Source: Apoda limacodes
Taxonomy: Eukaryota > Arthropoda > Insecta > Lepidoptera > Limacodidae
Reading direction: 5' to 3'
NCBI GenBank assembly: GCA_946406115.1
Contig: OX291545.1
Span: 11,670,001 to 11,734,000, forward strand
DNA length: 64,000 bases
A program made the translations under genes and the position numbers. Below, piece by piece: positions 50,701 through 64,000 of this stretch (positions within the stretch are counted from its first letter, which is position 1; each line of letters starts with the position of its first letter). The notes below the pieces were generated by a model. That model searched no databases, was not told where the DNA came from, and saw nothing but the letters and a program-made list of their open reading frames with translations.

Positions 50701-53700
50701 GTTTTTGGTTGATTCACTATCTGCGAAACAAAAGTTGACAAAAGTAAAAAGTATACCTAAATTGTGGTACTACTAATACCTATAGTTTTAAGAAGATAGA
50801 TGGATATTGATAGATCTTGTGGGCTTTTTCGTTGCTGTCACTTTAAAAAGTTCCTCCAAACAGCCCAACAAGGATATTCAACTAATCATGGTCCCTTTTT
50901 TATAGGAACTACTAGTACATGGTTAATTAGTTCTATAAAATCTCTCATGAGGCTATTTACGTTTACAAACATAAAACAAACTTCTTAAAATAATATTCAA
51001 AAAAATGGAATTGAATTAAATTAAAAGAAATTTGTAATTATATTTAAGTAATTTGCCCAAATAGCGTTAGCTCTCTATTTTTTAAATTTATTTAACCGAA
51101 TAAATAGCAAAGTAAATTACTGCGTCGAGTTCGTGTCCGCAAGGAACTCCTGCGCTCCGGCGGCGGGGTGTCGACTAGCTTGATCGCTGCGACGGCGTCG
51201 GCGACATCGGCGGCGGCGGCAGCGGGGCGCGGCGCGGCTGTCGGCGTGCGGCAGCAGACGGCGCACACGCGCGTACCCGCCTCGTTCACGAACGTGCAGT
51301 GCTCGCATTGCCAAGCCGTATCCGGCGCGTCTGGGGCAGGACCTAACGAATCCTTTTCTACCATTTCCTGTTTAAAAATAATGCGGTTAGTACGTAAGTT
51401 TGATCAGAAATTTATTAATTCGCTCAACGAGAAACTCTCTCTTGATACAACACTGCAAGTAACTTCGCAAAGTTACTTTTTTTAATTACACTAAACCCGT
51501 GCTTGGAAAATATTGGATTGGATTTGGGCCCTAATGCCTGATCAGAGTTGTTTAATTAATATAATTTTTTCATACATCCAAGAAGTCGCCTATTATCTGC
51601 ACTAAGTATGGTATGATAGATATGTTTCGAGTTGACTGAGAGTACCTGTGAGTTGGGTTCGTCTTGTCCGTCGCTCTCGGAGTCAGCGTCACTAGAGCAG
51701 GAGGGCGGCGGAGAGGGAGAGCGGGCTCGCGGGCGGCGGGAAGCACGCGATCGCACGCTGCCCGCGGGCGACGCAGCACGCGAAGCCGCTCGCGATGTCG
51801 CCCGCGACAAACTTCCACCACCCACTGCAACTTTATAAGATGCAATCATAGTCTCCCGTTTCGGCTACTGTGTGCGAACTGCTCTGGCCTCTCCACAAAA
51901 ACCGCGTGATTCGTGGTTACTTATACAATAAAAAAGCAAATGACGTGTTTATGTATACGGGCAAATGTGTGCGTAATCATCTATCTATGTTTGTTTATGA
52001 CCATAGAAATATGTTTTATATAGTACTTACCTCTTCTAGACGTCTGCGGCGTTCGTGGAGGGTGAGCATGCGGGTGTGCGTGAGGGTGCAGAGGCTGCAT
52101 GGGGTGAGGAGTACAACACGGCTGCGGCCAGGATGGAAAGTAGGGGTGGTGGAGATCGGCACAACTTCCATACCGCCACGCCCCTGTCGTCATCCCCGTG
52201 TTACATTGTACACACCCCGGGCATGCCCCTGCTGTCCCGCCTAATTCCAAAACGGAAGCACCCCTTCGCAACGGACGCCCCCAGTTTTGATTTTCGTTCG
52301 ATATGATTTCAGGTCCTTCCCACGCATCTGCAGCCATTCCCTATCATTCAGAAAAAAGGAAACAATCAGTTGTTTGTGATTAATACATATTAATATATAT
52401 TTCAGATGCAAGTACCGACTTGGTACGCTTTACATTTATAACTAAAAACTAGACCATAATAATACATAACAATTGATAGACGAAGCTCATTAGATACTAT
52501 ATTTTATGTGGCAATGTAGTTTAAAGTACTTAAAAAATTACACATAGTGTGATGTATTCGACTCGTTAAAACAACCAAGTGTGATGTGTCCGACTCATTA
52601 AAACAAACAAAATTAATCCAAACTCGAGGAGTTTTCTAGAAGCCACTGAAGAGTTCCACTTTCCACCACCTGGTTTCAACATCACATACTCTCTATAGAA
52701 CCGTATTATTGTATTGTCATCGATATTATAATCATATTGTACATTTGCATAGTTTTATATCAATACGACAGTTACAATATTGTTTAGTAGATTTCATATA
52801 TTATATATAGTCTAGTAGTAGTAGTAGTAAGGAATACTAACCACATTAGGAGTTATATTGTAACCCGCCAGCGATCCACGTTGACGCCCCCAGGTTGCCG
52901 AAAGGTGTCCCATCGTATTAGTCTGACCCTGAGTTTGTGAGACAGGAGTTGCGTGTATCGCGGGTCCTATGTGATGCACTGACGGAAGGTACGGCATGCT
53001 ACCGAGATGCGCTGCAGGCACTTTGTTCATATGATGAGGAGAAAGTTGGTGGTGGGTATGTGTAGGTGAATGATTGTTGAGTGTTACGGTAGGAGACTGG
53101 ATGTGTAGGCCTGGAACTACGTTTAGCGTCCCCAGTGTAGACCGCCGTTGATCTGGCGTGGCGAGCCTCGGACTGGCGCTAGATCTGTCGCCGCTTATCT
53201 GCATTAGAAACAATTTTAAAAAATCTTGTGAAACATGAACAAAACGTATGAAAATTTATTTGAAAACAAAAAACAACTATATGTAAAACAAGGTAAAAAG
53301 ATGTAAACAACATGGCGTCAAAAGCTGCAAATATAAATAGTTAAATGGATAAACATAATATGTAGTTAGGAAGGTTTGACTGCGTCTTCTTGTACAATGC
53401 TTAAAACTTTCTCTTTTTTAAAAGCAGATATGTTCCGTAGGTAAACTGCGAAAACGGAACCTTTTATATTTTCGGAATTTCTGTCTATCCGCTGATTCGT
53501 ATATCGCAGCGGTGTAATTCCGCAATCTCAGACAATTCTAAAAAGTGTGATGTTGCTTCCACCGGAGAACCCTAAGAGGAATGAACTCCCTGTTTTCCAT
53601 ATGCAAAATTAAAAAAGCAGTGATTGGATTTTTACTTAAAAACAATATTTTAATTTCATTTCGAAAAAGAATACAGGAAGTAGGTACATCGATTCTTGAT

Positions 53701-54193
53701 GCTAATAAATAAAAAAAACCCACACTTCTGGACCGAAAAGGCTACAGTAAATTCATATAATTGTCTGCTAGCTAGCTAGCTTTTCATTGCAGGATTGCTA
53801 TGGCTGTTTGATGTTAATTGTAATAAAGAAAACAATTCTCATTCGTCCAATTGAAAGCACAGAATAATTTGAAATTACAAGAACAAATGACATTCTTCTT
53901 CTGATACATTTTAATACTTTGACATAAAATAATATAAAATAGTTGTACATTTAGTTACTTTTATTAAACAACAGACTATTCTATGCATTCAATTTTGGTT
54001 TGCTACGAGACGTAATATTGCAATCTATCCATAAATACACCAAAAATACAGCCCACCAGCAATCGGGTAGGTAAAAATTATGCCTTGAATAGAATACCTT
54101 ATGTCTTCGCGGCGGAGGCACCGGCGGTGTCGCTTTTGGTGGCAACGGAGGCAGCTCAACTCGTGGTGAAGGTGAGGTCGGTAGTTGCAGTGC
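29541..54193 (-). CDS. lubel: RBR E3 ubiquitin ligase of the LUBEL/HOIP family (5' exons missing)
   Basis: Family members join ubiquitins head to tail (Met1 chains) and act in innate immune and NF-kB signalling. Eighteen exons join in phase: 54193-54098, 53198-52842, 52340-52031, 51824-51646, 51367-51121, 50720-50278, 49918-49793, 49618-49424, 49046-48690, 48320-48200, 48112-45294, 38213-38016, 37208-36981, 34663-34523, 33299-33148, 32398-32203, 30814-30672, 29892-29547, about 2,218 codons. Domains: NZF (51.2 kb), UBA-like helices (48.7-49.0 kb), RING1 (38.0/37.2 kb), IBR (34.5 kb), RING2 with active-site Cys (33.2/32.4 kb), LDD region (30.7/29.7 kb). The first exon here starts in phase 0 after an acceptor, so the N-terminus is missing. 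The end is either TGA at 29,541-29,543 or a splice at 29,547. Confidence 0.92.
29547..29892 (-). CDS. lubel: lubel exon: LDD helices, apparently two units
   Basis: Acceptor 'tgttgcag'. 115 codons. Unit one: [20 protein letters not shown] then [11 protein letters not shown]. Unit two: [20 protein letters not shown] then [15 protein letters not shown] has one such unit. After YAGMCAE the frame can either splice (gtatga) or read one Val codon to TGA at 29,541-29,543. YAGMC resembles the HAGLC that precedes unit one, which hints at a further exon. Confidence 0.88.
29987..30054 (-). mobile_element. tRNA-derived SINE head
   Basis: Reversed, shows an A-box (TGGTCTAGTGG) and B-box-like GGTTCGAGCCC at tRNA-like spacing, but the stems do not close as in a working tRNA. 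Lies in the last traced lubel intron. Confidence 0.5.
30309..30372 (-). mobile_element. tRNA-derived SINE head
   Basis: Reversed, contains 'cgggttcgattcccg' (B-box with T-arm) preceded by an A-box-like segment. Lubel intron. Confidence 0.5.
30672..30814 (-). CDS. lubel: lubel exon: start of LDD region
   Basis: Acceptor 'tctgacag' region ending at 30,815, donor 'gtatgt'. Encodes [14 protein letters not shown] to HAGLCK, joined in phase after LQTLLQ; matches the HOIP stretch between RING2 and the linear-ubiquitin-chain determining helices. Confidence 0.88.
31009..31409. mobile_element. 401-base MITE in a lubel intron
   Basis: Inverted ends: 'tagaccg' then 'acagtgacacaaaatattgg' and 'gtcatt' at 31,009-31,055, mirrored at 31,370-31,409 with few changes. 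Flanking TA dinucleotides fit a Tc1/mariner-type target, but this is not proven. No transposase inside. Confidence 0.85.
32058..32124 (-). mobile_element. tRNA-derived SINE head
   Basis: Reversed, 'gtgggttcgattcccgc' gives a T-arm with B-box; upstream bases resemble a D-arm. Lies just downstream (3') of the RING2 exon in the lubel intron. Confidence 0.5.
32203..32398 (-). CDS. lubel: lubel exon: RING2 with catalytic cysteine
   Basis: Acceptor 'gttttcag', donor 'gtttaa'. Reads [17 protein letters not shown]; the Cys codon at 32,389-32,391 corresponds to the HOIP thioester-forming cysteine. [14 protein letters not shown] follows, as in HOIP. All zinc ligands expected here are present, so the ligase should be active. 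Confidence 0.94.
32931..33109. repeat. Dispersed repeat, copy 1 (partner at 50,101-50,266)
   Basis: Shares 'gcgctcccgac'/'acgctcccgat', 'gtctttacata', 'gagctgt' and 'ctgtatgaatg' in the same order with 50,101-50,266. Both copies end close to a lubel exon border. Confidence 0.65.
33148..33299 (-). CDS. lubel: lubel exon: IBR end and start of RING2
   Basis: Acceptor 'ttgttgcag', donor 'gttaca'. [17 protein letters not shown] is the linker helix and [16 protein letters not shown] opens RING2. Ends after two bases of the Arg codon completed in the next exon. Confidence 0.92.
33381..33457. repeat. Dispersed repeat, copy 1 (partner at 49,963-50,035)
   Basis: 'ggccatttgccgccctcacc' and 'caccgcaccccgcat' match 49,963-50,035 in order. 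Confidence 0.6.
34251..34501 (+). mobile_element. 3' end of the dispersed LINE, with poly-A tail
   Basis: Plus-strand copy of the end of the 27.7 kb LINE: 'tcccgcgaacgct', 'gagctccctgccaaggtttt', 'gggtcggcaacgcgcgag' and the 'aggcggacc' tail, ending in about 20 A. The long A-run suggests a fairly recent insertion. Lubel intron, opposite strand. Confidence 0.88.
34523..34663 (-). CDS. lubel: lubel exon: IBR domain, first part
   Basis: Acceptor 'tcctgcag', donor 'gtgaga'. 47 codons with [22 protein letters not shown] and CANCRKP, the paired Cys ligands of the in-between-RING domain. Confidence 0.92.
35284..35515 (+). mobile_element. Short interspersed repeats ('gcccgcggtt' type), two partial copies
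   Basis: Two successive partial copies of the repeat at 13,828-13,956 ('cccgcggtttcacccgcccc' and 'cccgcggttccacgcgcccc'), followed at 35,606-35,752 by its usual end 'ataatattagtatggg'. A LINE tail is inserted between them. Confidence 0.65.
35521..35603 (+). mobile_element. LINE tail nested in the short repeat
   Basis: 'tatggtgacagcttaccatc', 'aggcggaccgtaagc' and 'caccttagtggtata' with an A-run, same family as 34,251-34,501. Confidence 0.75.
35755..36235 (-). mobile_element. LINE fragment around the start of reverse transcriptase
   Basis: Read on the minus strand: TWNVINSKT near 36,220, [19 protein letters not shown] near 36,150, then [11 protein letters not shown] near 35,900 and, after shifts, [17 protein letters not shown] near 35,800. 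FRPISI is the RT motif that follows the endonuclease in jockey/CR1 elements. Broken by stops; lies in a lubel intron. Confidence 0.8.
36776..36935. mobile_element. MITE-like fragment ('gttccgtacc' family)
   Basis: 'gttccgtaccc' at 36,783 and 'ggtacggaaccctcgatgcg' with 'gagtccaactcg' at 36,889-36,918 are hallmarks of the family at 38,676-39,236. It ends about 45 bases from the RING1 exon border. Confidence 0.6.
36981..37208 (-). CDS. lubel: lubel exon: rest of RING1
   Basis: Acceptor 'ttgttag', donor 'gtcact'. 76 codons. [14 protein letters not shown] and [11 protein letters not shown] give the remaining RING1 ligands; the helical [14 protein letters not shown] follows as in HOIP. Confidence 0.92.
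37611..37665 (-). mobile_element. LINE tail, minus strand
   Basis: 'taataccactaagttggc' and 'ggtctacctgatg' are the reversed tail of the dispersed LINE family. Lubel intron. Confidence 0.65.
38016..38213 (-). CDS. lubel: lubel exon: pre-RING helices and first RING1 cysteines
   Basis: Acceptor 'tttatcag', donor 'gtatgt'. 66 codons, [10 protein letters not shown] to RYPEHE. The CELC pair supplies the first two zinc ligands of RING1. Confidence 0.88.
38676..39236. mobile_element. Inverted-repeat element of about 560 bases
   Basis: Left end 'aaaaaaccggtcaagtgtg' and right end 'cacacttggccggttttta' are reverse complements with one or two changes. Inside are two copies of a 'taagcggt...cccat' block with 'tttaatatcgttt'-like words. 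Fragments of the family occur at 11,625, 17,590 and 36,776. Confidence 0.75.
39237..40516. other. Lubel intron, nothing recognised
   Basis: No exon-like frame found on the minus strand. The 79-codon frame at 39,871-40,110 (-) lacks splice sites that would fit the lubel phase and has no motif. Confidence 0.4.
40517..40753. repeat. Imperfect inverted repeat of about 240 bases
   Basis: 'ggcaaaaagcctcgattttt' at 40,530 and 'aaaaatcgagggtttttgcc' at 40,727-40,746 pair with few changes. It abuts the transposase gene on its left and may be its 5' end or a separate MITE. Confidence 0.55.
40773..43520 (+). pseudogene. DDE_Tnp_4-like transposase, copy 2, with one stop and one frameshift
   Basis: DNA transposase inserted in the largest lubel intron, opposite strand. 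Exon 1 ends at 40,922 (donor gtaagt) and exon 2 starts at 41,567 (acceptor 'gttacag'), in phase. Exon 1 gives CLRCG and exon 2 CYICHAC, together a four-Cys zinc site like a ZAD. Then [15 protein letters not shown], a helical region, and the catalytic core: Asp in IIIFDGTY (42,415), Asp in FILDRGF (42,652) and Glu in VVEVVNGRF (42,800). The end [16 protein letters not shown] (about 43,370-43,420) is SWIM-like. Breaks: TGA at 42,428-42,430 right after the first catalytic block, and a frame change near 42,775-42,783. PIF/Harbinger relatives share the DDE core. The start codon is not certain. Confidence 0.85.
43580..43880 (-). mobile_element. LINE 3' UTR-like repeat fragment
   Basis: 'catagtccacgtgctggcct' and 'agtgcggattggcgga' followed by 'tgctctccgaagcacgaagg' is a frequent lepidopteran repeat; its first part is the reverse of the kind at 16,690-16,720. 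Confidence 0.55.
44258..44293 (-). mobile_element. LINE fragment, minus strand
   Basis: 'gcctatggacgcttgcaaca' matches 27,742-27,762. A short relic of the dispersed LINE tail. Confidence 0.55.
44403..44885. repeat. Inverted repeat arms flanking a GTGC microsatellite
   Basis: The left arm (44,403-44,491) is the reverse complement of 44,805-44,885 ('aagaatattttcttgtttca' and flanks). Between them lies a run of GTGC units at about 44,688-44,735. The copy at 45,013 onward matches the left arm even better than 44,826 does. Confidence 0.75.
44826..45206. repeat. Tandem duplication, two units of about 187-194 bases
   Basis: Unit 1 (44,826-45,012) and unit 2 (45,013-45,206) are nearly identical, both from 'ttttcttgtttcatactttt' to 'tttagctacctg'. 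Differences cluster in the first 60 bases. It ends 88 bases from the lubel giant exon border. Confidence 0.88.
45294..48112 (-). CDS. lubel: lubel giant exon: 939-codon disordered linker with 20-residue repeats
   Basis: Acceptor 'acatttcag', donor 'gtacga'. The single 2,819-base exon is rich in Asn, Ser, Asp, Glu and Thr, with few hydrophobic clusters, so it is likely disordered. Four perfect-length 60-base units at about 45,984-46,223 encode ISETNDV-type repeats. The last 160 residues change to Lys/Pro-rich ([16 protein letters not shown]) and then [12 protein letters not shown] before LPPPPPL. It ends [10 protein letters not shown] and splices to the RBR exons. Confidence 0.9.
45984..46223 (-). 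repeat. Four in-frame 60-base tandem repeats in the lubel giant exon
   Basis: The word 'tttctgat' recurs at exactly 60-base spacing (46,013; 46,073; 46,133; 46,193). Each unit encodes a DDxxISETNDVxTVMxNAS-like 20-residue block. Confidence 0.9.
48200..48320 (-). CDS. lubel: lubel exon: short linker
   Basis: Acceptor 'attgcag', donor 'gtaatc'. 40 codons plus one base, [10 protein letters not shown] to STRRLR, joining the UBA-like exon to the giant exon in phase. Confidence 0.75.
48690..49046 (-). CDS. lubel: lubel exon: UBA-like helical domain
   Basis: Acceptor 'ttcatag', donor 'gtaacc'. 119 codons. The order [21 protein letters not shown], then [19 protein letters not shown] and [10 protein letters not shown] parallels the HOIP region that binds the HOIL-1L UBL. 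In insects the partner is uncertain. Confidence 0.85.
49424..49618 (-). CDS. lubel: lubel exon: Arg-rich segment with Trp
   Basis: Acceptor 'aattatag', donor 'gttaca'. 65 codons, [10 protein letters not shown] to SAYYGSE, with [14 protein letters not shown]. No known domain. Confidence 0.75.
49793..49918 (-). CDS. lubel: lubel exon: Arg/Ser-rich segment
   Basis: Acceptor 'ttttgcag', donor 'gtgagc'. 42 codons, [10 protein letters not shown] to SSETR, strongly basic with SR dipeptides. Confidence 0.8.
49963..50035. repeat. Dispersed repeat, copy 2 (partner at 33,381-33,457)
   Basis: See partner: 'cccccctccctt', 'aatacctaaccgcacccc' in the same order. Lubel intron. Confidence 0.6.
50101..50266. 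repeat. Dispersed repeat, copy 2 (partner at 32,931-33,109)
   Basis: 'gcgagcgctcccgac', 'gtctttacatagggcc' and 'ccgactgtatgaatg' match the partner. It ends 12 bases from the lubel exon at 50,278. Confidence 0.65.
50278..50720 (-). CDS. lubel: lubel exon: repeated S/T-x-SPP motifs
   Basis: Acceptor 'tttcgcag', donor 'gtaaac'. 147 codons with five spaced copies of a G-x-S-P-P motif ([40 protein letters not shown]). They look like proline-directed phosphorylation or SH3/WW-binding sites; this is inference. Confidence 0.85.
51121..51367 (-). CDS. lubel: lubel exon: NZF-type zinc finger
   Basis: Acceptor 'aaacag', donor 'gtaatt' (weak but phase-correct). Contains [20 protein letters not shown], i.e. 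W-x-C-x2-C-x3-N-x6-C-x2-C, the ubiquitin-binding NZF pattern found in HOIP and LUBEL. An Ala/Arg-rich linker follows. Confidence 0.88.
51646..51824 (-). CDS. lubel: lubel exon: Arg/Ser-rich segment
   Basis: Phase requires the acceptor 'gttgcag' at 51,825-51,826; starting further upstream is blocked by an in-frame TAG. Donor 'gtactc'. Encodes [18 protein letters not shown] repeats and an acidic serine end ([10 protein letters not shown]). Confidence 0.7.
52031..52340 (-). CDS. lubel: lubel exon: Trp/Cys/His-rich low-complexity segment
   Basis: Acceptor 'atgatag', donor 'gtaagt' (consensus). 103 codons plus one base, GMAADAWEG to TPQTSRR. Includes the His-Pro run [10 protein letters not shown]. 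Some Cys pairs (CPGC, CVQC) are close together but do not make a known finger. Confidence 0.75.
52842..53198 (-). CDS. lubel: lubel exon: His/Ser/Thr/Pro-rich disordered segment
   Basis: Acceptor 'aatgcag', donor 'gttagt'. 119 codons starting [10 protein letters not shown] and ending NITPNV. Many His and Pro, no fold recognised. Confidence 0.75.
54098..54193 (-). CDS. lubel: lubel exon: proline-rich segment
   Basis: Acceptor 'ttacaag', donor 'gtattc'. 32 codons, [10 protein letters not shown] to PPPRRHK, dominated by PPxPP-type runs. Most 5' exon found; upstream exons must exist. Confidence 0.7.
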
Positions 54194-55036
54194 CTTGTAA
54201 GTACAAACATTACAATATACACGATGAGTTAATTAGTAAAGATAATATCCTAAATAAATAACTTCGACGATAAATAGAACAGGGATGAAAAGCAATTGCT
54301 TTAGATGGTTGCCTCTTTGACTGGTATTTTGCGAGAGTGTGTAAGTGTTCCTATAAGTCGACGTATGTAAACACTTATCACTATCATAAAACAAACTAAT
54401 AATAAAATGTATTTGTTTAGTATTTAAGTATTTTTATTTTATTTTATTTGTACAACTTACATGGTTTTAAGGTAAGTGTATTTTTGACTAACACACTATG
54501 GACCACGGTCTGAAATAACCATTTATTATTTTTATTAAACCGCAGAACTATATTAACTAAATTTTAATATATATATCGGCTTAGAAAAAACTTAACTATT
54601 AGGTAGGTAGTAGGTACTTATTTGCCAAAATGAGGAGCTTATTTGCAACAGTCTCGAGTACCTACCCCAGACTGCAATTCGAAAGAAATGCAAGTAGGTC
54701 TTACCTCTAGAGACCCGTGAAACCTACCTACAACCCAGGCCAATTTGCGTAAGTACCTACTAAAAAAAATTTTTGAGCGTATAAAAATGTTGTCTTGGCG
54801 CCAACCATGAGTAATGTACGGTACGGTATCGCCCCGTAGGCACAAACATATAATAGATGAAGATTTTCATAGAGCAGTTGGTAATCATTCTACACTAGAT
54901 CCCTGTGTGGATTAGTCACACTAGTAGTAGGGAGGTACGGGAACTGGCTCAACTTTGAGGGGGCCTGTGAGGGGGTTATTGGGGGCCCGCGAAAAAGCTC
55001 TCTACACACTCGCGGATCATATGTGAATCAACTTTA
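54194..55036. other. Non-coding stretch upstream of the first traced lubel exon
   Basis: No exon recognised. A G-rich patch at 54,955-54,995 with the palindromic words 'gggcccgcg' precedes the minisatellite. Confidence 0.4.
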
Positions 55037-55246
55037 TTCGCGGTCTAATTATTTTAATTCGCGGTCCAATTACTTTAATTCGCGTGTGGATCTATTTTAT
55101 TCGCGGTCTAATTATTTTAATTCGCGTGTGGATCAATTTTATTCGCGGTCTCATTATTTTCATTCGCGTGTGGATCAACTTTGTTCGCGATCTAATTATT
55201 TTAATTCGCGGTCCAATTATTTTAATTCGCGTGTGGATCAACTTTA
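55037..55246. repeat. Minisatellite: ten 21-base modules of two alternating types
   Basis: Every module starts with 'ttcgcg'. Type A is 'ttcgcggtctaattatttta' plus one A; type B is 'ttcgcgtgtggatcaacttt' plus one A. The order is A A B A B A B A A B, then a broken unit from 55,247. Because 21 is a multiple of three, all frames stay open and produce false ORFs on both strands. Confidence 0.95.
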
Positions 55247-55269
55247 TTCGCGGTTCTATGAAATGTTCT

Positions 55270-55860
55270 GCGTGCAGTGTCAACAATGGTTTTTAACAAC
55301 AATAGATAATTCATTATTTAGTTTCTTTCAGTTTCTTTTATCTACGAGGTTTAATTTTTTGTAAGTCTCTGTGGGTAGCAACGATTTCAATGAATTGTAA
55401 TAACAATAAGACGTTGATTTATTTCTTAAATGCCGTGGGAGGTCCCTGCTAACAGGTTGATACATGTTTTACTACGAAGAGGCGTCATCTTTAGAAAATT
55501 TTTCAATTGAAATTATTTATTTAAGCTCTGTGACAAGCAAATACAGCTACTTACAATGCCAATATGGATTGTGATAACAAAAGATAACTTATTGTTTGGT
55601 GTCCTTTATTTTGAACTTAAGCTTTAAAATTAAACGGCAGATTATTTCTTCAATGCACTTCCGAGGAGGTCTGTTAACAATTAGACACATGTTATCTATA
55701 GAAATATTTTCTATTAAAAATATTTATTTAAGCTCTTCGTCATGCAAACATTCCGATACCAGGTACTTACAATGCCAATATGAATTGAGTGATAACAATA
55801 GATGGCTTATTGTTTAGTTTTTTTTTTCCGACGTTGATTCATATCGTGTGAGGTCTCTGT
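55270..55860. repeat. Degenerate tandem repeat, period about 216 bases
   Basis: 'ttacaatgccaatatg' at 55,551 and 55,767 (216 apart), 'tatttaagctct' at about 55,517 and 55,725, and 'cttattgttt' after each define two clear units. A more diverged start of the same motif ('acaacaatagataattcatt') is seen at 55,298. No coding content. Confidence 0.75.
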
Positions 55861-55902
55861 CATATCCTGTTGGAACACGCAAAGACATGTAGGCTATAAC
55901 CA

Positions 55903-55941
55903 TATATATAAGGAACCACAGTAAAATTCACACTGCAGTCT
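55903..55941 (+). promoter_or_regulatory. TATA box and initiator of the small two-exon gene
   Basis: 'tatatata' at 55,903-55,910 is followed about 30 bases later by 'gcagtct' at 55,935-55,941, an arthropod initiator-like sequence. The ATG at 55,996 lies about 60 bases further on. Confidence 0.6.
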
Positions 55942-55995
55942 TATTCGTGAGTTTCAAAGTTATACCTACAGTGTTTTGTGTTCATATTCCATCAA

Positions 55996-57063
55996 ATGGA
56001 GGTAAGTTTAATTACTTAATTTTCTCGATAGTGTATGTTTTATTGTTTTTTCATAATGTATGTGTGTAATTGTTTTATTATTGTCCTGTTTGGTCAAATG
56101 GTTAGTGCAGCTAACTGCGGAGCCAAGGGTCACGGGTTCGAATCCCACAAGGAGCAGGTGTTTTTTGTGATGATTAAACATTTGTTACTGAATCATGGAT
56201 GTTGTTTATATGTAGTCTATGTACTGATATTCTATGGTTGTTGTTTCTGGTTACCATAACACAAGTTTAATACTTAGCTTGGGGTCGGAACCATCTATGT
56301 GTATACGTTTATGTATATTATTTTATAACGGTATTACATAATTAGCGTCTAACCAATAGTTAAAGTACTGAGTTCCAATATTATTATTTTTTTTCTCTTA
56401 TGTGCTTGTAACAGCAATTAATGTGTGTTAGTATATTATTCAATCGAATCAAATAGTGAAGTTTGTTTGTTTATTGTTCTTTAACCCAGCAATAGAGATT
56501 ATTAGCACTATAAGGAAATTTTATTAATACAATTTTATTAATTTCATTTTTATTAACTTATTGTTTTATAATTTTTATTGTTCCAGCCTTTATCCCCGGA
56601 AAATTATACGTTAAAAAATTATTACTTTCCTTTGGATATGAGTCAAGAAGAAACTAAAGACTGTACTATTCAAAAAAATTTGAAAAGCACAACAAAGCGG
56701 AATATCAAAAGTATTGACGCATTTTTTGAAAATCCTAAGAAAAGAAAATCTCAAGCAAAGTCTTCGTGTGTCAGTCAAGGCAATGAAAATGGAATCTCTT
56801 ATATTTCTACCAATAATGACGACACAACGTCTGCAAGTCACCTATTAAAAATTGAAATATATAATATGAAAAAGATAAAGGACATACCAGCTGAAGATCA
56901 TTGGAAATACGCAGACTTAAAAGTTAAATATTATACACAATCACATGACGACCAGCATTATCTAAGTACCCGGGATTCCATATATAATATTACAAAACAA
57001 ATAGCAATGAACTGTGATTGTAAAAAGTTCTTCATTGAAACTAAAGATAAGCGGGGATATTAA
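55996..57063 (+). CDS. Small two-exon gene of unknown function with nuclear-signal and PIP-like motif
   Basis: Exon 1 is ATGGAG (55,996-56,001) directly before a consensus gtaagt; exon 2 is 56,587-57,063 after 'tattgttccag', in phase, giving 160 residues. Around residues 42-56 the protein has SIDAFF followed by PKKRK. SIDAFF resembles a PCNA-binding box without its leading Gln, and PKKRK is a classical nuclear signal. The C-terminal third is mixed charged (EDHWKYADLKVKYYT) and ends CDCKKFF to RGY. I do not recognise the family. It lies divergently beside the Polinton-like block and could be an accessory gene of that element or a host gene. The intron holds a tRNA-like SINE head. Confidence 0.55.
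56088..56157 (+). mobile_element. tRNA-derived SINE head
   Basis: A-box-like TGGTTAGTGCA and B-box GGTTCGAATCC at tRNA spacing, with weakly paired ends. Not a convincing functional tRNA. Sits in the intron of the small gene. Confidence 0.55.
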
Positions 57064-57169
57064 TTTCATTCATTCATTTACAACTTCTTAACATTACTTA
57101 ACAGAGAACGCCAAAGCTTAAAAACAACAATAGATTTACCCCCACGCTTCATTCAATAACAAGTAGCCA

Positions 57170-57487
57170 TTGTCAGAGTCAGTGTATTTAAAGACGGGCA
57201 AAAGACTTCTAGTCAATATTTTCTCACCAGCAAACACCATGGATGTGTTCAAAGATCGTGAATACGACAAGGATTTGCTTAACATGTGTTTTGAAGCGGA
57301 AAGAAAATATTTGTTACTCAATAGTGGTTACTCACTTCCGATATCACAACCATACGAGGAACGTAAAATTAATATTTTGACGGTGATGGACCAAGACAAG
57401 AAAAGGAAATGTGCATTTCATACACACAAGAAGATTTATCACCATCTTTCTATAGTCCTCAAGATTATGTTTAGCTTAAGAATGTAA
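57170..57487 (+). CDS. Uncertain ORF after the small gene
   Basis: Open from 57,170, first ATG at 57,239 (MDVFKDREYDKD), stop at 57,485-57,487, followed 15 bases later by AATAAA at 57,502-57,507. Composition is protein-like (AERKYLLLN, ERKINILTVM). It may be a separate small gene, a further exon of the gene at 55,996, or 3' UTR. No good donor joining the two was found. A distant BEN-domain resemblance of the first 60 residues is only a guess. Confidence 0.35.
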   Translation: MSESVYLKTGKRLLVNIFSPANTMDVFKDREYDKDLLNMCFEAERKYLLLNSGYSLPISQPYEERKINILTVMDQDKKRKCAFHTHKKIYHHLSIVLKIMFSLRM

Positions 57488-57587
57488 AACACTGTTTATT
57501 AAATAAATAAATGTTGAATTAAAAATATCGTTTTTTTATGTAATAAGTTTCCAACAAATAAAACACATAAATTCATAAATCTATAAG

Positions 57588-57593
57588 TTTATT
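57588..57593 (-). terminator. Poly(A) signal overlapping the protease stop
   Basis: AATAAA on the minus strand at 57,593-57,588 contains the TAA stop codon of the protease gene. This economy fits the compact element. Confidence 0.6.
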
Positions 57594-58032
57594 TTAAAAA
57601 AATTGCTTTATAAAGTGCTCTTAAAATTAGATCATTATACAGAGTGTTATTTGAAAAAATGTTTACAAAATCCATCATAGAAATACCAATAGATCTCATA
57701 AATAGATACACTAAACAATATTCACCACAAACTGATGTATAATAATTTTGTATCATTTTTGCATTAAAAAAATATTTTTTAGCGTTCCTTTGCATAAATA
57801 TTTTATGATATCCAGTTGGTTTTCGGCCATATGAATCGAAATATTCACCGAAACCATTTTTGTCTATGTGAATAGCAATCCAATGAGATCCTGGTTTAGT
57901 GTCAGGATCTAAGTTACTTACAATATATGATGGATACGAAATGAAAACGGGCATGCGATTTGAAGCAAAAACATTGCATTCTGCTAATGGATTAATTTTT
58001 TTTAATAATTTACGTATTTCATAAGTATCCAT
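57589..58032 (-). CDS. Adenain/Ulp1-like cysteine protease
   Basis: 147 residues. Capsid-maturation protease of the Polinton type. His50 (GSHWIAIH), Asp66 (YFDSYG), Gln95 (IQNYY) and Cys102 (VCGEYC) form the order and spacing of the C5/C48 protease active site; Gln to Cys is 7 residues, as in adenovirus protease. ATG at 58,032 is the only early Met. Length is short but usual for this group. It is the last gene of the block, 74 bases after the major capsid gene. Confidence 0.92.
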   Translation of the reverse strand: MDTYEIRKLLKKINPLAECNVFASNRMPVFISYPSYIVSNLDPDTKPGSHWIAIHIDKNGFGEYFDSYGRKPTGYHKIFMQRNAKKYFFNAKMIQNYYTSVCGEYCLVYLFMRSIGISMMDFVNIFSNNTLYNDLILRALYKAIFLK

Positions 58033-58106
58033 TACACCTCTCGTAACTACAAAAGTTATTTTCAGAATGAATAAAATAATAGCTTTAGAACAATATATAT
58101 GTTTTT

Positions 58107-59420
58107 TTAACTATTATAATCTACACTTACATCACGATTTTTATTAATTTCTATAATGTTGTCAAATTCTGCATATATAATACAATTTACTGTAGTTTTT
58201 AAAGAGTTTTCGAAGCGGACTTCCAATCTAACACTTCCATGTCTTATTAGATTCCAATGCGATTGTGAATTGGATGAAAGATCTGGGGTTAAATCAAAGG
58301 CTAATAAACAGTATCCATTGGCAAATTCTTCTCTAGATATATCATTACCTTCATTCAAAAAATGAATACCAGTTCCCGAATATAAAGTGTGATATGCTGA
58401 TGTAAATAAACTGCTATCAAATGAAGGTTGCAATGTTTTAGAAGGTATTTGTTGGCCATCTACATATAAGCTAAACATATTTAAATTAAAGTTTTGAAAA
58501 TTATATGGGTTCATATTAAAACTTCCATTAAAGGCTGAATTATTTACAAAACCAACTATACATCTTTTGGGAACTTGACCTAAAAAAATATTATCAAGTG
58601 TTTTTCCTTGGATTCCTGAAGGTAACGTCATAACCTTGACTTCCGCACGCGTTATAGGGTATTTGGCAGTAGTGTTGGCTAAAACTTTTTGATGAGCTAA
58701 TAACACAGAAGGACTTATCCTAGCCCTTCTTATTAAAAGTGTTGCATCATTGATTTGCACTTTTAACTTTAAATCTGTACTAGATGACATTAAGTTAAAT
58801 GATTCTTTGGTACGTACTAATTTAATACGTAATTCAACACCGTTTATCAAAAATTTGTCTTGATTAAATATATCACCATGTAAATGACCAATCAATTCAA
58901 CTTCCTTGCTATCTTTCGTAAACTGCTGTCTCTTGGTGTAGCCTTCATTGCTTTCATCAGCAGAATCCATTTTGTTTGAGGTATCTTTATACCACAAACC
59001 ACATGTAAGATGAGATTTTTTTGCAGCAGGACCATAATTTAATAAAGTTTCAATATAAGAACGATAGGCATAGGTGTTGTTTGGTGGGGAAACAAGCTTT
59101 TGATTTAGATAAACATCCATTTGATTAAAAAGAGAATGTAACCAGTTATTAACTGGGGCAACACTTGTCGCTGCAGTTAATACAGTTGAATCATGATTTA
59201 AAACTCTAACTTTTAATTGGAGTAATGTATTAGATAAGTCAATATAGTCTTCTCCTGTACCAGGAACTTGAAATTCTATGGGACCTTCATCACTCAAAGA
59301 TGAAATCGGTTTATAATGAATCCACTGACCATTCTCTATGCTTGTTTGTGTTGTTGGTAATGCAAATAAATCTAATTCAGACTTAGCACATTCACATGAA
59401 GTATTATGTAAGAACGACAT
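58107..59420 (-). CDS. Hexon-like major capsid protein (double jelly-roll, inferred)
   Basis: 437 residues, starting MSFLHNTSCE. The opening (ELDLFALPTTQTSIENGQWI, YKPISSL, then GTGEDYIDLSNTLLQLKVRV) is characteristic of Polinton major capsid proteins and of the animal F54H12.2-like proteins derived from them. NWLHSLFNQMDVYLN and FELRIK-like beta-strand segments follow. I infer the double jelly-roll fold from family knowledge, not from this sequence. Placed directly after the glycine-rich protein (15-base gap) and before the protease. Confidence 0.88.
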   Translation of the reverse strand: MSFLHNTSCECAKSELDLFALPTTQTSIENGQWIHYKPISSLSDEGPIEFQVPGTGEDYIDLSNTLLQLKVRVLNHDSTVLTAATSVAPVNNWLHSLFNQMDVYLNQKLVSPPNNTYAYRSYIETLLNYGPAAKKSHLTCGLWYKDTSNKMDSADESNEGYTKRQQFTKDSKEVELIGHLHGDIFNQDKFLINGVELRIKLVRTKESFNLMSSSTDLKLKVQINDATLLIRRARISPSVLLAHQKVLANTTAKYPITRAEVKVMTLPSGIQGKTLDNIFLGQVPKRCIVGFVNNSAFNGSFNMNPYNFQNFNLNMFSLYVDGQQIPSKTLQPSFDSSLFTSAYHTLYSGTGIHFLNEGNDISREEFANGYCLLAFDLTPDLSSNSQSHWNLIRHGSVRLEVRFENSLKTTVNCIIYAEFDNIIEINKNRDVSVDYNS

Positions 59421-59435
59421 TATTATTTGTTTGAT

Positions 59436-59885
59436 TTAAGAAAAAATATCACAACTATTCTTATTAAAAACTTTTTTAGTAGTTCTTCTTTTCGTTGCTT
59501 TCAGAGCAATGGCTGATCGTTTATTACGTCTCTTGTTTTTATACCCTGATCCAGTCATAATGCTATCAATTTTACTATCTGCTTTCCGTTTTAAATTACT
59601 TGTTGCATCTTTCATGCGAGATTTAATAGAATCATTCATAGGTTGTGCATTCATCATATCAGACAGGAGACCTACACCCATATTCAATGCTTCTTTACTG
59701 ACTGCCTTTGCTCCACTCGATAGCAACGGAAGTACAGATCTAAACAATCCCCCTAAAAAGCTTCCGATTCCATGGCCTCGTTGATATGGGACACCTTTGT
59801 AAATGATCCCCACTCCTGAACCAGCTTGATGAGAATAATAACTTTCATATGGGCAAATACTATGATTACGATTATGAGAATTCAT
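59436..59885 (-). CDS. Glycine-rich amphipathic capsid-associated protein (pVI/pX-like)
   Basis: 149 residues. Residues 37-75 (HGIGSFLGGLFRSVLPLLSS and following) are glycine-rich and amphipathic, and the C-terminal 50 residues are very basic (KNKRRNKR, KRRTTKK). This layout resembles adenovirus membrane-lytic/core minor proteins, to which adintovirus proteins have been likened. Function is inferred. Its ATG overlaps the penton stop as ATGA. Confidence 0.7.
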   Translation of the reverse strand: MNSHNRNHSICPYESYYSHQAGSGVGIIYKGVPYQRGHGIGSFLGGLFRSVLPLLSSGAKAVSKEALNMGVGLLSDMMNAQPMNDSIKSRMKDATSNLKRKADSKIDSIMTGSGYKNKRRNKRSAIALKATKRRTTKKVFNKNSCDIFS

Positions 59886-60652
59886 CTTATTCGTTTAAAA
59901 TGAAGTTTAGCACACGCAGTTCCAAATTGAAATGGTATTGTTGCACCTGTGTTTGTCCTTATATCTATTTCTATAGTATCAAACTCACGACGCATAACAG
60001 GTATATAGTGAGCTGGTGTAAACACATTCATTTTATAACCACCGTAAATATATTTTGTTGGGTCTAATGGAACTATTCGTAATAGTGATGTCATTACATC
60101 ACCCACAATTTGAGGTTGCACAATATCAGAGTACAAAAAAAGTTGTGAAGGCAATCCTAAAAACAAATTAACAGGACGTTTAGCTATGTTGTTTGCAATT
60201 AAATTAGTTTTTGGTCCAAAACCAAGTTGAAGACTTAGCTGTGGTGACATCCTTAAAGATAAAATGTTTTTATTTTGGGGTGTTAAAGAAAAGAGTTTTG
60301 ATGTCTCATCAAAACGAAACTTTATACAATCTTTTAAAAGGGGATTACTGTTAAGGGCATTTAGAAGCTGATCAATGTCATCATATGTTGTAGCGGGTAT
60401 GTGGGTTTTATATTCTGCAACACTTTCAATGTTGTCGACCAATATTTTTTTTCTAAGATATAGAACATTTTCATGTTCTCTGACATTTAAAATACTAAAA
60501 GGGTAATGAAATTCAACTAGTCCTACCAGCCACTCCCCTTCTAATTTAACTGTTTTAGGAAGCTTCGTCAAAAAGTTTGTTGTTGTATTGTTTGGGAAAT
60601 AGGTCATTGAACTGTTACTTAACAGAGTCAAATAAAAGCTTTCTTGACTCAT
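59882..60652 (-). CDS. Penton-like minor capsid protein (single jelly-roll, inferred)
   Basis: 256 residues. The N-terminus (SFYLTLLSNSSMTYFPNNTT, then NFLTKLPKTVKLEGEWLVGL and VEFHYP) is typical of Polinton minor capsid proteins that fill capsid vertices. It overlaps the integrase stop and the next start by 4 bases each (ATGA). No breaks. Confidence 0.85.
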   Translation of the reverse strand: MSQESFYLTLLSNSSMTYFPNNTTTNFLTKLPKTVKLEGEWLVGLVEFHYPFSILNVREHENVLYLRKKILVDNIESVAEYKTHIPATTYDDIDQLLNALNSNPLLKDCIKFRFDETSKLFSLTPQNKNILSLRMSPQLSLQLGFGPKTNLIANNIAKRPVNLFLGLPSQLFLYSDIVQPQIVGDVMTSLLRIVPLDPTKYIYGGYKMNVFTPAHYIPVMRREFDTIEIDIRTNTGATIPFQFGTACAKLHFKRIR

Positions 60653-61746
60653 ATTAATTCAATGTTAGATGTTGGAATCCAGGTATTGAATTTTGATGGA
60701 TAACCTTTCCACTTGACCAACACTTCTTTTCTGCCTCTAATATACCTAAAACTTATGATTTTATCTATTTTGTGCTTAAGGGTGGGGTCGTATAAAACTT
60801 TTTGTAGTTCTTTAGCATAAAATGTACCTGATATTGATTCTCCTTCTAAATCATTAAGTGTATAAAATATATAAACTTTATAAGGCGACCTATGAATAAT
60901 TGATGATATAACAAATACTTCATCACTCCAATTAGTTTCATAGCCTTTTTGAAATATATGTTTATGCTTAGTTATTCTTACATGGTCACCAATTTGAAAC
61001 TTAGGAAGCTCTGGATATATATTTTGGTTTTTATTTTTCCTGTCATATAAATTAGACCAAACAGTCATAATATTACTAGAATTGACGTCACATGGACACA
61101 TTTTTATACTCGAATGGTAACTGTGATTATATGAATACATCAAATCTTGCAAAATATCTACATATCTATATGTATTTTTGTGAGTGAAATAACGCCACAT
61201 TTTCATCTTAAGAGTTCTTTGAAATCTTTCTACAATACTTGCTTTAATATCTGGATTATTCGTTGTGTAGTAATTTATGTTTTTACTCTTAAAATACCTT
61301 CTAACATCTTTTGCAACGAATTCACTACCCTTATCAGATTGTATATGTTTTGGAGTTGCGTTAGCTTCTGTAAATATACTTTCAAAGCATTGTATTGTAG
61401 TTTCTGAATTCTTTTTTTTCATACATCTTGCAAAAGCATATTTACTAAAGACATCAATGACACAGATAATATATTTATAATTATCGTTATATTGACTATA
61501 GGTTCGCATATCGCTTAAATCAACTTGCCAAAGGTCGTTATAGTTAGATAAAATGTATTTATTTCTAGAAAACTTTCTCTGAACAGGTCTATGTAAAGTA
61601 TATGTTTCTTGCGCCTGTAACCATTTTTTTACTTCTTTTCTATTCATCTTTCCATCCATAGCTTGGGTTAACTTATCAATACTACTATAACCAGCTGGAT
61701 TAGAAACATCATAATATATTTTGTCTATATCTAATACGGTGACCAT
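60649..61746 (-). CDS. Polinton integrase (rve core plus chromodomain)
   Basis: 365 residues. Retroviral-type integrase that would insert the element. Residues 69-230 form the core with Asp76 (WQVDLSD), Asp138 (IQSDKGSEF) and Glu173 (SIVERFQRT), the DDE triad with 34 residues between the last two. Residues about 328-365 (FRYIRGRKEVLVKWKGYP, then TWIPTSNIELI) are a chromodomain, which may guide insertion to marked chromatin. A classic HHCC zinc motif is not evident at the N-terminus. The ATG overlaps the upstream gene by 16 bases. Confidence 0.94.
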   Translation of the reverse strand: MVTVLDIDKIYYDVSNPAGYSSIDKLTQAMDGKMNRKEVKKWLQAQETYTLHRPVQRKFSRNKYILSNYNDLWQVDLSDMRTYSQYNDNYKYIICVIDVFSKYAFARCMKKKNSETTIQCFESIFTEANATPKHIQSDKGSEFVAKDVRRYFKSKNINYYTTNNPDIKASIVERFQRTLKMKMWRYFTHKNTYRYVDILQDLMYSYNHSYHSSIKMCPCDVNSSNIMTVWSNLYDRKNKNQNIYPELPKFQIGDHVRITKHKHIFQKGYETNWSDEVFVISSIIHRSPYKVYIFYTLNDLEGESISGTFYAKELQKVLYDPTLKHKIDKIISFRYIRGRKEVLVKWKGYPSKFNTWIPTSNIELI

Positions 61747-62489
61747 CTTTCCCAGTCAATTTTCTTGCTTTTTATATCTTTTAAAGACGTTCTCGGTGTT
61801 TCACTACTGGGCGTAGCATGTTTTTCAGGGGGAGAAGTTTCTTTAAATTTCTCTATATGTAGTTTCTTAACATACTCCAATGTTGTAGGATTACCGATAC
61901 AATATAAAGGTAAACTTATATCAGTTAATAACTGAGAAAATTCTCCCCTCGGTTTTGGACGTTTTAGCTGACGTAAGGTATCATTAATCAAATCTACAAT
62001 ATTGGTCCCAGGTATAACCTGCTCATTTATAGTGATTCTCCCTTGTGTATCCCATTTGACTTTATCATTATTTTCTATCAACGTTTTAATTAGCAGTTCA
62101 CCTTTTTTTTTAAATGTCCTTGGAATTAATCTCATTAAATAAAAATAAGAATAGGGCTTATTGTAAACTACGTCCCTCTCTTTGGATGGTGACTGTGTAA
62201 GTAATGGTTCAGCTTTAATCTCTTCTTCTTTATATTTTTCTGTTAATTCACTGTCATCCGACACCAAAGGCAATTTTAGTGGTTGTCTTTCTTCACCAGT
62301 AAAATACAAATATCTTTGTAATGTTTGTGAATAGAGCTTCCACTTCTCACGGTCTTCTAATTTCCTACTAAGAATATCCCGCATTTCCTTATCTAGTCGC
62401 GACAAGGAATCTTCAGGAATAATTTCTCTACGTTTGAGCCTTTCTAAGACGTTAGGTTCAATTAATAACATCTTTTTAGCGTTCTCCAT
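61731..62489 (-). CDS. Conserved Polinton-associated protein of unknown function
   Basis: 252 residues from the ATG at 62,489 (MENAKKMLLI); the frame stays open to 62,531 but with no earlier ATG. An N-terminal helical part (PNVLERLKRREIIPEDSLSR, DKEMRDILSR, LYSQTLQRYLYFTG) is followed by a linker and a C-terminal domain with VKWDTQGRITINEQVIPGTN, IVDLINDTLRQL and PRGEFSQLLTDISLP. Proteins with both blocks are widespread in invertebrate Polinton-like elements; I know of no proven role. Confidence 0.75.
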   Translation of the reverse strand: MENAKKMLLIEPNVLERLKRREIIPEDSLSRLDKEMRDILSRKLEDREKWKLYSQTLQRYLYFTGEERQPLKLPLVSDDSELTEKYKEEEIKAEPLLTQSPSKERDVVYNKPYSYFYLMRLIPRTFKKKGELLIKTLIENNDKVKWDTQGRITINEQVIPGTNIVDLINDTLRQLKRPKPRGEFSQLLTDISLPLYCIGNPTTLEYVKKLHIEKFKETSPPEKHATPSSETPRTSLKDIKSKKIDWERWSPY

Positions 62490-62493
62490 TTTC

Positions 62494-62814
62494 TTATATG
62501 ACAGAATTGAGCAAAGAACTAAGAACTGCACCCAAAATTACAGGTAAGAATGCACCACCTTTCTGTATAATTATCTTTTTTCTGAATTTATTTCTTCCTT
62601 TAGAAACTAATTTCCTGAGAACCACTTTGTGTTTTTTTAATTTAGACTTTTCTTGCTCCTTTAAAGGAATTTTACCATTTAAAACATTAAAAATACATTC
62701 ACAGAGACAGTTTATTTCTTGTTCGTTACAACTTTTTAATAGTGCCTCACAATACTTTGGTTTAAGTGTATGTAAAGCTTTTAATAATTCTTTATGTGCC
62801 TTAACTCGTCTCAT
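62494..62814 (-). CDS. Small basic protein with hydrophobic C-terminus
   Basis: 106 residues. Residues 10-70 are helical and Cys/Lys-rich (LHTLKPKYCEALLKS, INCLCECIFNVLNGKIPLKE), 60-81 very basic, and 86-106 hydrophobic with GGAFLP. The tail could be membrane-active or core-associated as in small adenovirus-like proteins; inference only. It has a shorter relative directly upstream. Confidence 0.75.
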   Translation of the reverse strand: MRRVKAHKELLKALHTLKPKYCEALLKSCNEQEINCLCECIFNVLNGKIPLKEQEKSKLKKHKVVLRKLVSKGRNKFRKKIIIQKGGAFLPVILGAVLSSLLNSVI

Positions 62815-62867
62815 TATTATTAATTATTAAAAACATTTGTTTAAATAAATTTTGATAAAATAACTGC

Positions 62868-63110
62868 CTATAATACTGTTGACACTAAACAATTTAAATT
62901 CAGGGACCTCAGTGAATATCTCTTCGTTTTTTTATTTGTTTTTTCTTTTAAATTAATTTTTTCTGCTAAAATAAAATTAAGCTGTTTACAAATATTGTTT
63001 AATTCTTCTTTACTAGTTGTTTCTTGTAAAGTTTTGCAATACTTTCGTTTCAATACTTTTAATATTACACTAAATGAATTATTATTACACGTTGTTACGG
63101 TTCCGTGCAT
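62868..63110 (-). CDS. Small protein, shortened relative of the next gene
   Basis: 80 residues from ATG at 63,110, overlapping the ATPase stop by 16 bases. ILKVLKRKYCKTLQE and LNNICKQLNFILAEKINLKE line up with the same positions of the 106-residue protein, but the GG-x-hydrophobic tail is missing. It looks like an old tandem duplicate. Confidence 0.65.
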   Translation of the reverse strand: MHGTVTTCNNNSFSVILKVLKRKYCKTLQETTSKEELNNICKQLNFILAEKINLKEKTNKKTKRYSLRSLNLNCLVSTVL

Positions 63111-63772
63111 GATGTTGAACTAATTGATATTTGATCCTTCATATTACATTTAAATCCTTTTTTTGGTATGTAAACAGTACAAAAAATATTATTGAGTGGA
63201 AATATATTACTTTTAAAGCGATACATGTCATTTGTTTTTTGTTTTAGATCTATCATCAAATAACCATGCGGATCACTAGTGGCATCTTTATAGGCTTCCT
63301 CTACAAATTTGGAATTATCAGGAAAAACTTGTCGTGCTAAATGGCGTATTTGAGTTCTGTCCCGAGGATTTTTGAAATAAATTATATAAGAAGAGTTTAG
63401 TGAAATATCACGTTGACCTTTACCTTGATGAAATAAATTTTGAGTTATATAGAAAACGCTTAAATTTCTGTGATGGCTCCCTTTAGTAAAAATATCAACA
63501 ACTCGTCCATCCGATTCTCGCATTAGGTCATCTATAACCAGTAATTGAGGTTCATTACCATCAAACATATTTAAATCTGGAATTCCTTGAGTGTATATAA
63601 CATTACTAATATTATACAGTGGCTGCATTTCATCGTAACACCAAAATATATGCTTAAAATCTGTGTCACATATTTTTTTAGCGCAGTTTATAAAATTTGT
63701 AACAAAATTAGATTTTCCACATCCACTCGGACCTGCTACTATAGCTGTAAAAGGGTGTGAGAAATGAAACAT
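63095..63772 (-). CDS. FtsK/HerA-like (A32-type) genome-packaging ATPase
   Basis: 225 residues. Would pump the element's DNA into capsids. Walker A is GPSGCGKS at 14-21; Walker B is LLVIDDL at 77-83; a sensor-like FYITQNLF with polar Asn follows at about 107-114. The length suits Polinton ATPases. ATG at 63,772 follows an A-rich leader. First gene of the block in this window. Confidence 0.93.
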   Translation of the reverse strand: MFHFSHPFTAIVAGPSGCGKSNFVTNFINCAKKICDTDFKHIFWCYDEMQPLYNISNVIYTQGIPDLNMFDGNEPQLLVIDDLMRESDGRVVDIFTKGSHHRNLSVFYITQNLFHQGKGQRDISLNSSYIIYFKNPRDRTQIRHLARQVFPDNSKFVEEAYKDATSDPHGYLMIDLKQKTNDMYRFKSNIFPLNNIFCTVYIPKKGFKCNMKDQISISSTSCTEP

Positions 63773-64000
63773 CGTTTTTTTTTTTAATACGTGTTAGCTT
63801 CATAAGGATTTTAAGTCAAATGTCATTTGTTCACATTGAACATTAGTTTTAAATAAAATACAGTAATACTATAAAAATCATTTATTAAATATTTTAAATA
63901 GTAAAATGTAAAGTTGACAAAACAAATAATTAGGGTTCCTTTTTCTTTTTTTTTTTATTAAATTAAAACAGTTTAATTCAGGCACAGAGAAAACCAATAT
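63773..64000. other. AT-rich non-coding end of window, probably still inside the element
   Basis: No ORF. Upstream of the ATPase start, so it should hold the promoter for this gene block. The element's polymerase gene was not reached. Confidence 0.4.

What the first reader, a model, noticed from the sequence alone, without database searches (positions are those of the whole stretch)
57589..63772. Apparently undamaged Polinton/adintovirus-like structural block
Nine overlapping or closely spaced ORFs cover the packaging, capsid, maturation and integration functions with intact catalytic residues and no stops. Most such copies in animal genomes are broken. An undamaged set suggests recent insertion and perhaps the capacity to form particles, if a polymerase gene lies past 64,000.
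Basis: partly seen in the sequence, partly recalled or inferred. Interest (0 to 1): 0.88.

Follow-up and report, generated by a model that had tools for sequence, protein, structure and literature searches.

The report
Intact Polinton late-gene block, likely lepidopteran
A stretch of what is likely moth or butterfly DNA carries nine uninterrupted reading frames of a Polinton, a virus-like jumping element, among them genes predicted to make a capsid, a maturation protease, a packaging motor and an integrase; it is a well-kept member of a known kind, and whether it can still move or form particles is untested.

The parts
63095..63772 (-). ATP: packaging-ATPase candidate, 225 aa
   Evidence: Walker A and B; Pfam RNA_helicase E 2e-4 just above cut-off, Pox_A32 0.013 and Adeno_IVa2 0.017 below cut-off; no packaging ATPase found in PDB by sequence. 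Function inferred.
62868..63110 (-). ORF8: 80 aa basic protein, short paralogue of ORF7
   Evidence: 37% identity over 49 residues to ORF7, E 7e-08; lacks ORF7's C-terminal segment
62494..62814 (-). ORF7: 106 aa, strongly basic with hydrophobic C-terminus; virion-core-like guess
   Evidence: K+R minus D+E = +17, 23% K+R; no confident family. Role inferred.
61731..62489 (-).
   Evidence: 65 homologues, the 7 rows naming an organism all Lepidoptera; start conserved; model pLDDT 74.6, pTM 0.46, no confident fold match
60649..61746 (-). INT: integrase with rve core and C-terminal chromodomain, 365 aa
   Evidence: Pfam rve 4.3e-14 and Chromo 7.9e-10; D,D35E intact; 1,182 homologues; retroviral integrases and Rhino/HP1 chromodomains in PDB
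59882..60652 (-). penton (minor capsid) candidate, 256 aa
   Evidence: position and size only; three unrelated Pfam hits below cut-off (best LEF-8, E 0.0095), no PHROG hit, best PDB E 0.63
59436..59885 (-). ORF3: 149 aa basic, Gly-rich; candidate core or membrane-active precursor
   Evidence: K+R minus D+E = +18; loose adenain-like motifs NMGVG at 68 and MTGSG at 110, but the same loose pattern also occurs once in MCP and once in the penton candidate; motif rule recalled, role inferred
58107..59420 (-). MCP: double jelly-roll major capsid protein, 437 aa
57589..58032 (-). PRO: adenain/S273R-type cysteine protease, 147 aa
   Evidence: phmmer to ASFV S273R E 2.8e-4 over residues 38-124; H50 D66 Q95 C102; no Pfam hit
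57239..57487 (+). small ORF (82 aa from its ATG) facing the block; likely accessory gene region of the element
   Evidence: AATAAA at 57502 and 57506 on this strand, and at 57588 for the opposing strand: the two frames converge about 100 nt apart; no Pfam match for the longer frame 57170-57484
56578..57063 (+). ORF with a PCNA-box-like stretch (IKSIDAFF) followed by KKRK; possibly exon 2 of a spliced accessory gene
   Evidence: no Pfam match, best PDB E 0.31; PCNA-box reading recalled, untested
55996..56586 (+). predicted start codon (55996), donor GTAAGT (56002) and acceptor (ends 56586) of that gene, with a TATA box at 55903
   Evidence: read by eye, positions and matching phase 0 checked; no splice predictor or RNA used
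55484..55818 (.). two diverged direct copies (about 77% identical) of a roughly 120-bp unit in the left subterminal region
55022..55273 (+). 21-bp tandem array (unit ATTCGCGGTCTAATTATTTTA); possible part of the left terminal repeat
   Evidence: 6 matches with up to 3 mismatches, none in 100 shuffles; assignment inferred

Best explanation
The block is the late-gene block of a Polinton/Maverick (adintovirus-type) element that likely inserted recently into what is likely a lepidopteran chromosome, and it would work by packaging the element's DNA into double jelly-roll capsids and re-inserting it with its own integrase. Shown by sequence or model: the nine stop-free ORFs, the integrase domains with chromodomain, the double jelly-roll fold of the capsid model, the protease match and its active-site residues, the ATPase motifs, and the lack of change at conserved sites. 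Inferred: that a protein-primed family B polymerase lies to the right of 64,000 and copies the linear DNA; that the ATPase fills a shell of capsid and penton proteins; that the protease trims basic core precursors (ORF3, ORF7); that the integrase, guided by its chromodomain, joins the ends to host chromatin.
For: ORF structure beyond chance. Integrase domains and D,D35E. Capsid fold. Protease match. Contig lengths shared between the capsid and integrase hit lists: 15 observed against 0.5 expected, from the first 62 and 73 of 120 rows each; five lengths are shared by capsid, integrase and ORF6. Equal length stands in for 'same contig' and was not verified, but it suggests that the block travels as a unit. 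The 7 organism-named rows among the 62 closest capsid hits and the 7 among the 65 ORF6 hits are all Lepidoptera. No departure at 115 (MCP), 65 (INT) and 31 (ORF6) conserved columns; zero stops in 2,017 codons gives a neutral-divergence bound of 0.87%.
Against: No polymerase recognised in the window; right end unseen. The conserved-column test discriminates weakly: 52 of the other 116 MCP rows and 76 of the other 115 INT rows also show zero departures, and the ORF6 median is zero. Capsid and protease have no Pfam match and the ATPase only marginal ones; PDB sequence searches found no packaging ATPase and no capsid. The penton is unproven. ORF8 looks like a shortened duplicate. No relative was found in viral contigs or prokaryote genome contigs.
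Confidence: 0.85

Rival explanations
1. A partial Polinton (a sub-case that the best explanation leaves open): the late block is intact but the polymerase half is lost or broken, so the copy moves only with help from other copies, if at all.
For: No polymerase or right terminus seen; nothing in the window excludes it.
Against: Stop-free late genes imply little time since a working ancestor; a young partial copy needs a second event.
Confidence: 0.3
2. A domesticated capsid cassette kept by the host for its own use (as polydnavirus-type gene sets are in wasps; recalled).
For: All nine ORFs open, conserved residues kept.
Against: The integrase, which a host would not need, is equally intact; relatives are many, and one Parnassius cluster has 164 members. 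Selection inside the host was not tested.
Confidence: 0.05
3. A contaminating or episomal virus sequence joined to host sequence by assembly.
For: The junction to host DNA could not be located exactly.
Against: The same window holds host-like sequence to the left: an RBR-type E3 ligase C-terminal domain at 29,541-29,936 (E 3.3e-13); the window has no N. Reads across the junction were not available.
Confidence: 0.05

Closest known systems
Polinton/Maverick-type relatives in Lepidoptera (rows naming Plutella, Parnassius, Melitaea, Bicyclus, Leptosia, Colias and others)
   Same: Capsid protein 73-79% identical to the organism-named lepidopteran rows (closest unnamed row 81%); integrase 66-77% in the first 73 rows bar fragments' coverage; ORF6 40-51% in the first 58 rows; shared contig lengths suggest co-location
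   Different: Nothing of kind; a further copy. Complete relatives could not be fetched for gene-by-gene comparison. The rows themselves are not labelled Polinton; that reading is ours.
Spodoptera frugiperda Maverick 1 and 2 (PMC5803895; search listing, passages and the Maverick section read, figures not seen)
   Same: Tandem small ORFs on one strand, with ATPase (228 aa there, 225 here), integrase with chromodomain and adenain-like protease (133 aa there, 147 here)
   Different: The paper reports a PLA2-bearing parvovirus-like CAP and no homologue of the usual Maverick capsid (PY); here there is a double jelly-roll capsid and no PLA2-type Pfam hit in the nine ORFs at E up to 1. Eight small ORFs there, nine here; gene order after the integrase seems to differ, going by that paper's ORF numbering. 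Its proteins were not aligned with ours.
Adintoviruses (definition read in passages of PMC11071296; the founding paper PMC8502044 is not held)
   Same: Integrase with C-terminal chromodomain and a hexon-type capsid protein
   Different: The defining polymerase with OTU-like N-terminus is not in the window; comparison with the Alpha and Beta reference hexons was not made.
Virophages mavirus and Sputnik
   Same: Double jelly-roll capsid fold
   Different: Capsid identity about 10-12% in the structural alignments; protist hosts (recalled)

Membership tests
Polinton/Maverick | retroviral-type integrase (listed in PMC11071308, passages) | tested here: met
   Pfam rve 4.3e-14, D,D35E
Polinton/Maverick | double jelly-roll major capsid protein | tested here: met
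   model and structure comparison
Polinton/Maverick | Ulp1/adenain-type cysteine protease | tested here: met
   S273R match E 2.8e-4 and active-site residues; no Pfam hit
Polinton/Maverick | packaging ATPase (A32/FtsK-type) | tested here: inconclusive
   Walker motifs present; A32 and IVa2 profile hits below cut-off; no PDB relative by sequence
Polinton/Maverick | single jelly-roll penton | tested here: inconclusive
   no credible sequence match for the 256-aa ORF; not folded
Polinton/Maverick | protein-primed family B polymerase | not testable with these tools
   would lie right of 64,000; genome search unanswered
Polinton/Maverick | long terminal inverted repeats and 6-bp target duplication (recalled) | not testable with these tools
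   right end outside the window; longest inverted pair within 53,000-64,000 is 27 nt
Adintoviridae | integrase with C-terminal chromodomain | tested here: met
   Pfam Chromo 7.9e-10 at residues 326-363
Adintoviridae | polymerase with OTU-like N-terminal domain | not testable with these tools
   not in window
Adintoviridae | hexon recognisable by BLASTp against Alpha or Beta references | not tested
   reference sequences not fetched

The most novel reading that the evidence does not exclude
A living, infectious lepidopteran adintovirus caught just after integration, still able to make particles, carrying a convergent, spliced early gene whose product recruits the host PCNA clamp and so couples element replication to host S phase.
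Probability: 0.08. Interest if true: 0.75.

Novelty: new member of a known kind. Interest (0 to 1): 0.3.

Why it matters
Whether animal Polintons are transposons or viruses is an old question: they encode capsids, yet an extracellular form has been hard to show (so the abstract of PMC7805220 in the listing). A young copy with its late genes open is a good place to ask for transcripts, small RNAs and particles. It also shows a double jelly-roll Polinton lineage spread over at least six named lepidopteran genera, beside the PLA2-CAP Mavericks described from Spodoptera. As a finding in itself it is one more copy of a widespread element.

Tried and rejected
Viral contigs were scanned for capsid (single and alignment), integrase (alignment) and ATPase relatives and for the 21-bp array: none. 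Genome contigs with the capsid alignment: none. So no complete relative could be read for gene order, polymerase position or terminal repeats.

ORF6 was folded to look for a function: mean pLDDT 74.6, pTM 0.46; no confident match in PDB or viral models (best E 1.0 and 0.015). The model was searched whole, not domain by domain.

A tRNA-like stretch near 56,100 was suspected by eye; ARAGORN and Rfam up to E 0.5 gave nothing, so no claim is made.

Other Polinton pieces in the window: tblastn of the nine proteins found only themselves, the ORF7/ORF8 pair (E about 4e-5) and four hits at E 0.27-0.75 or so that look like chance. The last 229 bases were translated in six frames; no polymerase end can be recognised from so little.

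Considered and rejected: chance ORFs; an old decayed copy; phage origin: PHROGs gave significant matches only for the integrase (transposase families), and weak ones for ORF3, ORF8 and the ATPase (E 0.007-0.07).

Literature searches: (listings only, apart from the papers named in the report). No claim of 'not in print' is made beyond the one search for F54H12.2.

Full report
What is there. On the minus strand, 57,589-63,772 holds nine ORFs of 80 to 437 aa, covering 97.6% of the block with junctions from -16 to +74 nt. The runs are far longer than composition gives: longest 442, 368, 268, 258 and 225 codons against a maximum of 166 in 200 first-order Markov sequences. In transcription order, right to left: ATPase candidate, ORF8, ORF7, ORF6, integrase, penton candidate, ORF3, major capsid protein, protease.

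Relatives. The capsid protein has 3,051 homologues at E 0.001, of which 120 are listed; the 7 organism-named rows among the closest 62 are all Lepidoptera (Plutella, Parnassius twice, Melitaea, Bicyclus, Leptosia, Colias; 73-79%), the first named non-lepidopteran row being the firefly Aquatica leii at 63%. ORF6 has 65 homologues, the 7 organism-named rows all Lepidoptera. The host is therefore likely a moth or butterfly; no tool named it. Source contigs of identical length recur in the capsid and integrase lists (15 observed, 0.5 expected), a proxy suggesting that the genes travel together.

Age. Zero stops in 2,017 codons bounds neutral divergence since a working ancestor at about 0.87% per site, and 0 of 211 conserved columns changed (95% bound 1.41% per residue). 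Both assume no selection within the host, and many other rows also show zero changes (52 of the other 116 capsid rows, 76 of the other 115 integrase rows), so this says 'young, like many copies', not 'uniquely intact'.

Left side. A 21-bp array (55,022-55,273), two diverged 120-bp copies and a plus-strand region converging on the protease gene, with poly(A) signals at 57,502/57,506 and, for the other strand, 57,588, look like the element's left end; this assignment is inferred. A TATA box at 55,903, an ATG at 55,996 followed by GTAAGT at 56,002, and an acceptor ending at 56,586 in the matching phase (read by eye, positions checked) suggest a spliced gene whose second exon is the 56,578-57,063 ORF; it carries IKSIDAFF then KKRK, which recalls a PCNA-binding box and a nuclear signal. 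Expression, splicing and binding are untested.

Surroundings. To the left lies host-like DNA, with an RBR-ligase C-terminal domain at 29,541-29,936 (E 3.3e-13) and, on the same strand, a weak RanBP-type zinc-finger hit at 51,092-51,364 (E 0.0018, below cut-off); from recall these fit a HOIP/LUBEL-type gene.

What could not be done. The region right of 64,000 was not reached: ten genome searches did not complete. Polymerase, right terminus and target duplication remain unknown.

Against the literature. Two apparently intact, transcribed Mavericks are described from Spodoptera frugiperda cells (PMC5803895, passages and the Maverick section), with chromodomain integrase and adenain-like protease but a PLA2-type capsid-like protein instead of the usual Maverick capsid. 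The present element has the usual capsid fold and no PLA2-type Pfam hit. Adintoviruses are defined in PMC11071296 (passages) by a polymerase with OTU-like domain, a recognisable hexon and a chromodomain integrase; here the integrase is met, the hexon comparison untested and the polymerase out of reach. Three adintovirus genomes, one complete and two near-complete, are also reported from Drosophila samples (PMC8363768, passages). A full-text search for F54H12.2, the name that databases give to several capsid relatives, found no paper in the held library. Verdict: a real, well-preserved, new member of a known kind.

Noticed in passing
window 56578-57063 (+): ORF with PCNA-box-like IKSIDAFF and KKRK, possibly exon 2 of a spliced accessory gene facing the late block.
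   Followed up: partly
window 62494-63110 (-): ORF7 and ORF8 are tandem paralogues; ORF8 is shorter and lacks ORF7's C-terminal part.
   Followed up: partly
window 55022-55273: 21-bp tandem array with TTCGCG cores; no other match in the window with up to 3 mismatches.
   Followed up: partly
window 29541-53213 (-): Pieces of what may be one host gene: RBR E3 ligase C-terminal domain (E 3.3e-13) and a weak zinc-finger hit; the element may lie upstream of it or in a 5' intron.
   Followed up: partly
window 41603-42430 (+): Transposase-like ORF with HTH_Tnp_4 (E 9e-06, just below cut-off); the next ORF, 42738-43520, has no Pfam match.
   Followed up: no
window 59436-59885 (-): ORF3 carries two loose adenain-like motifs; a precursor trimmed by the nearby protease is possible, but the pattern also occurs once in two other ORFs.
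   Followed up: no
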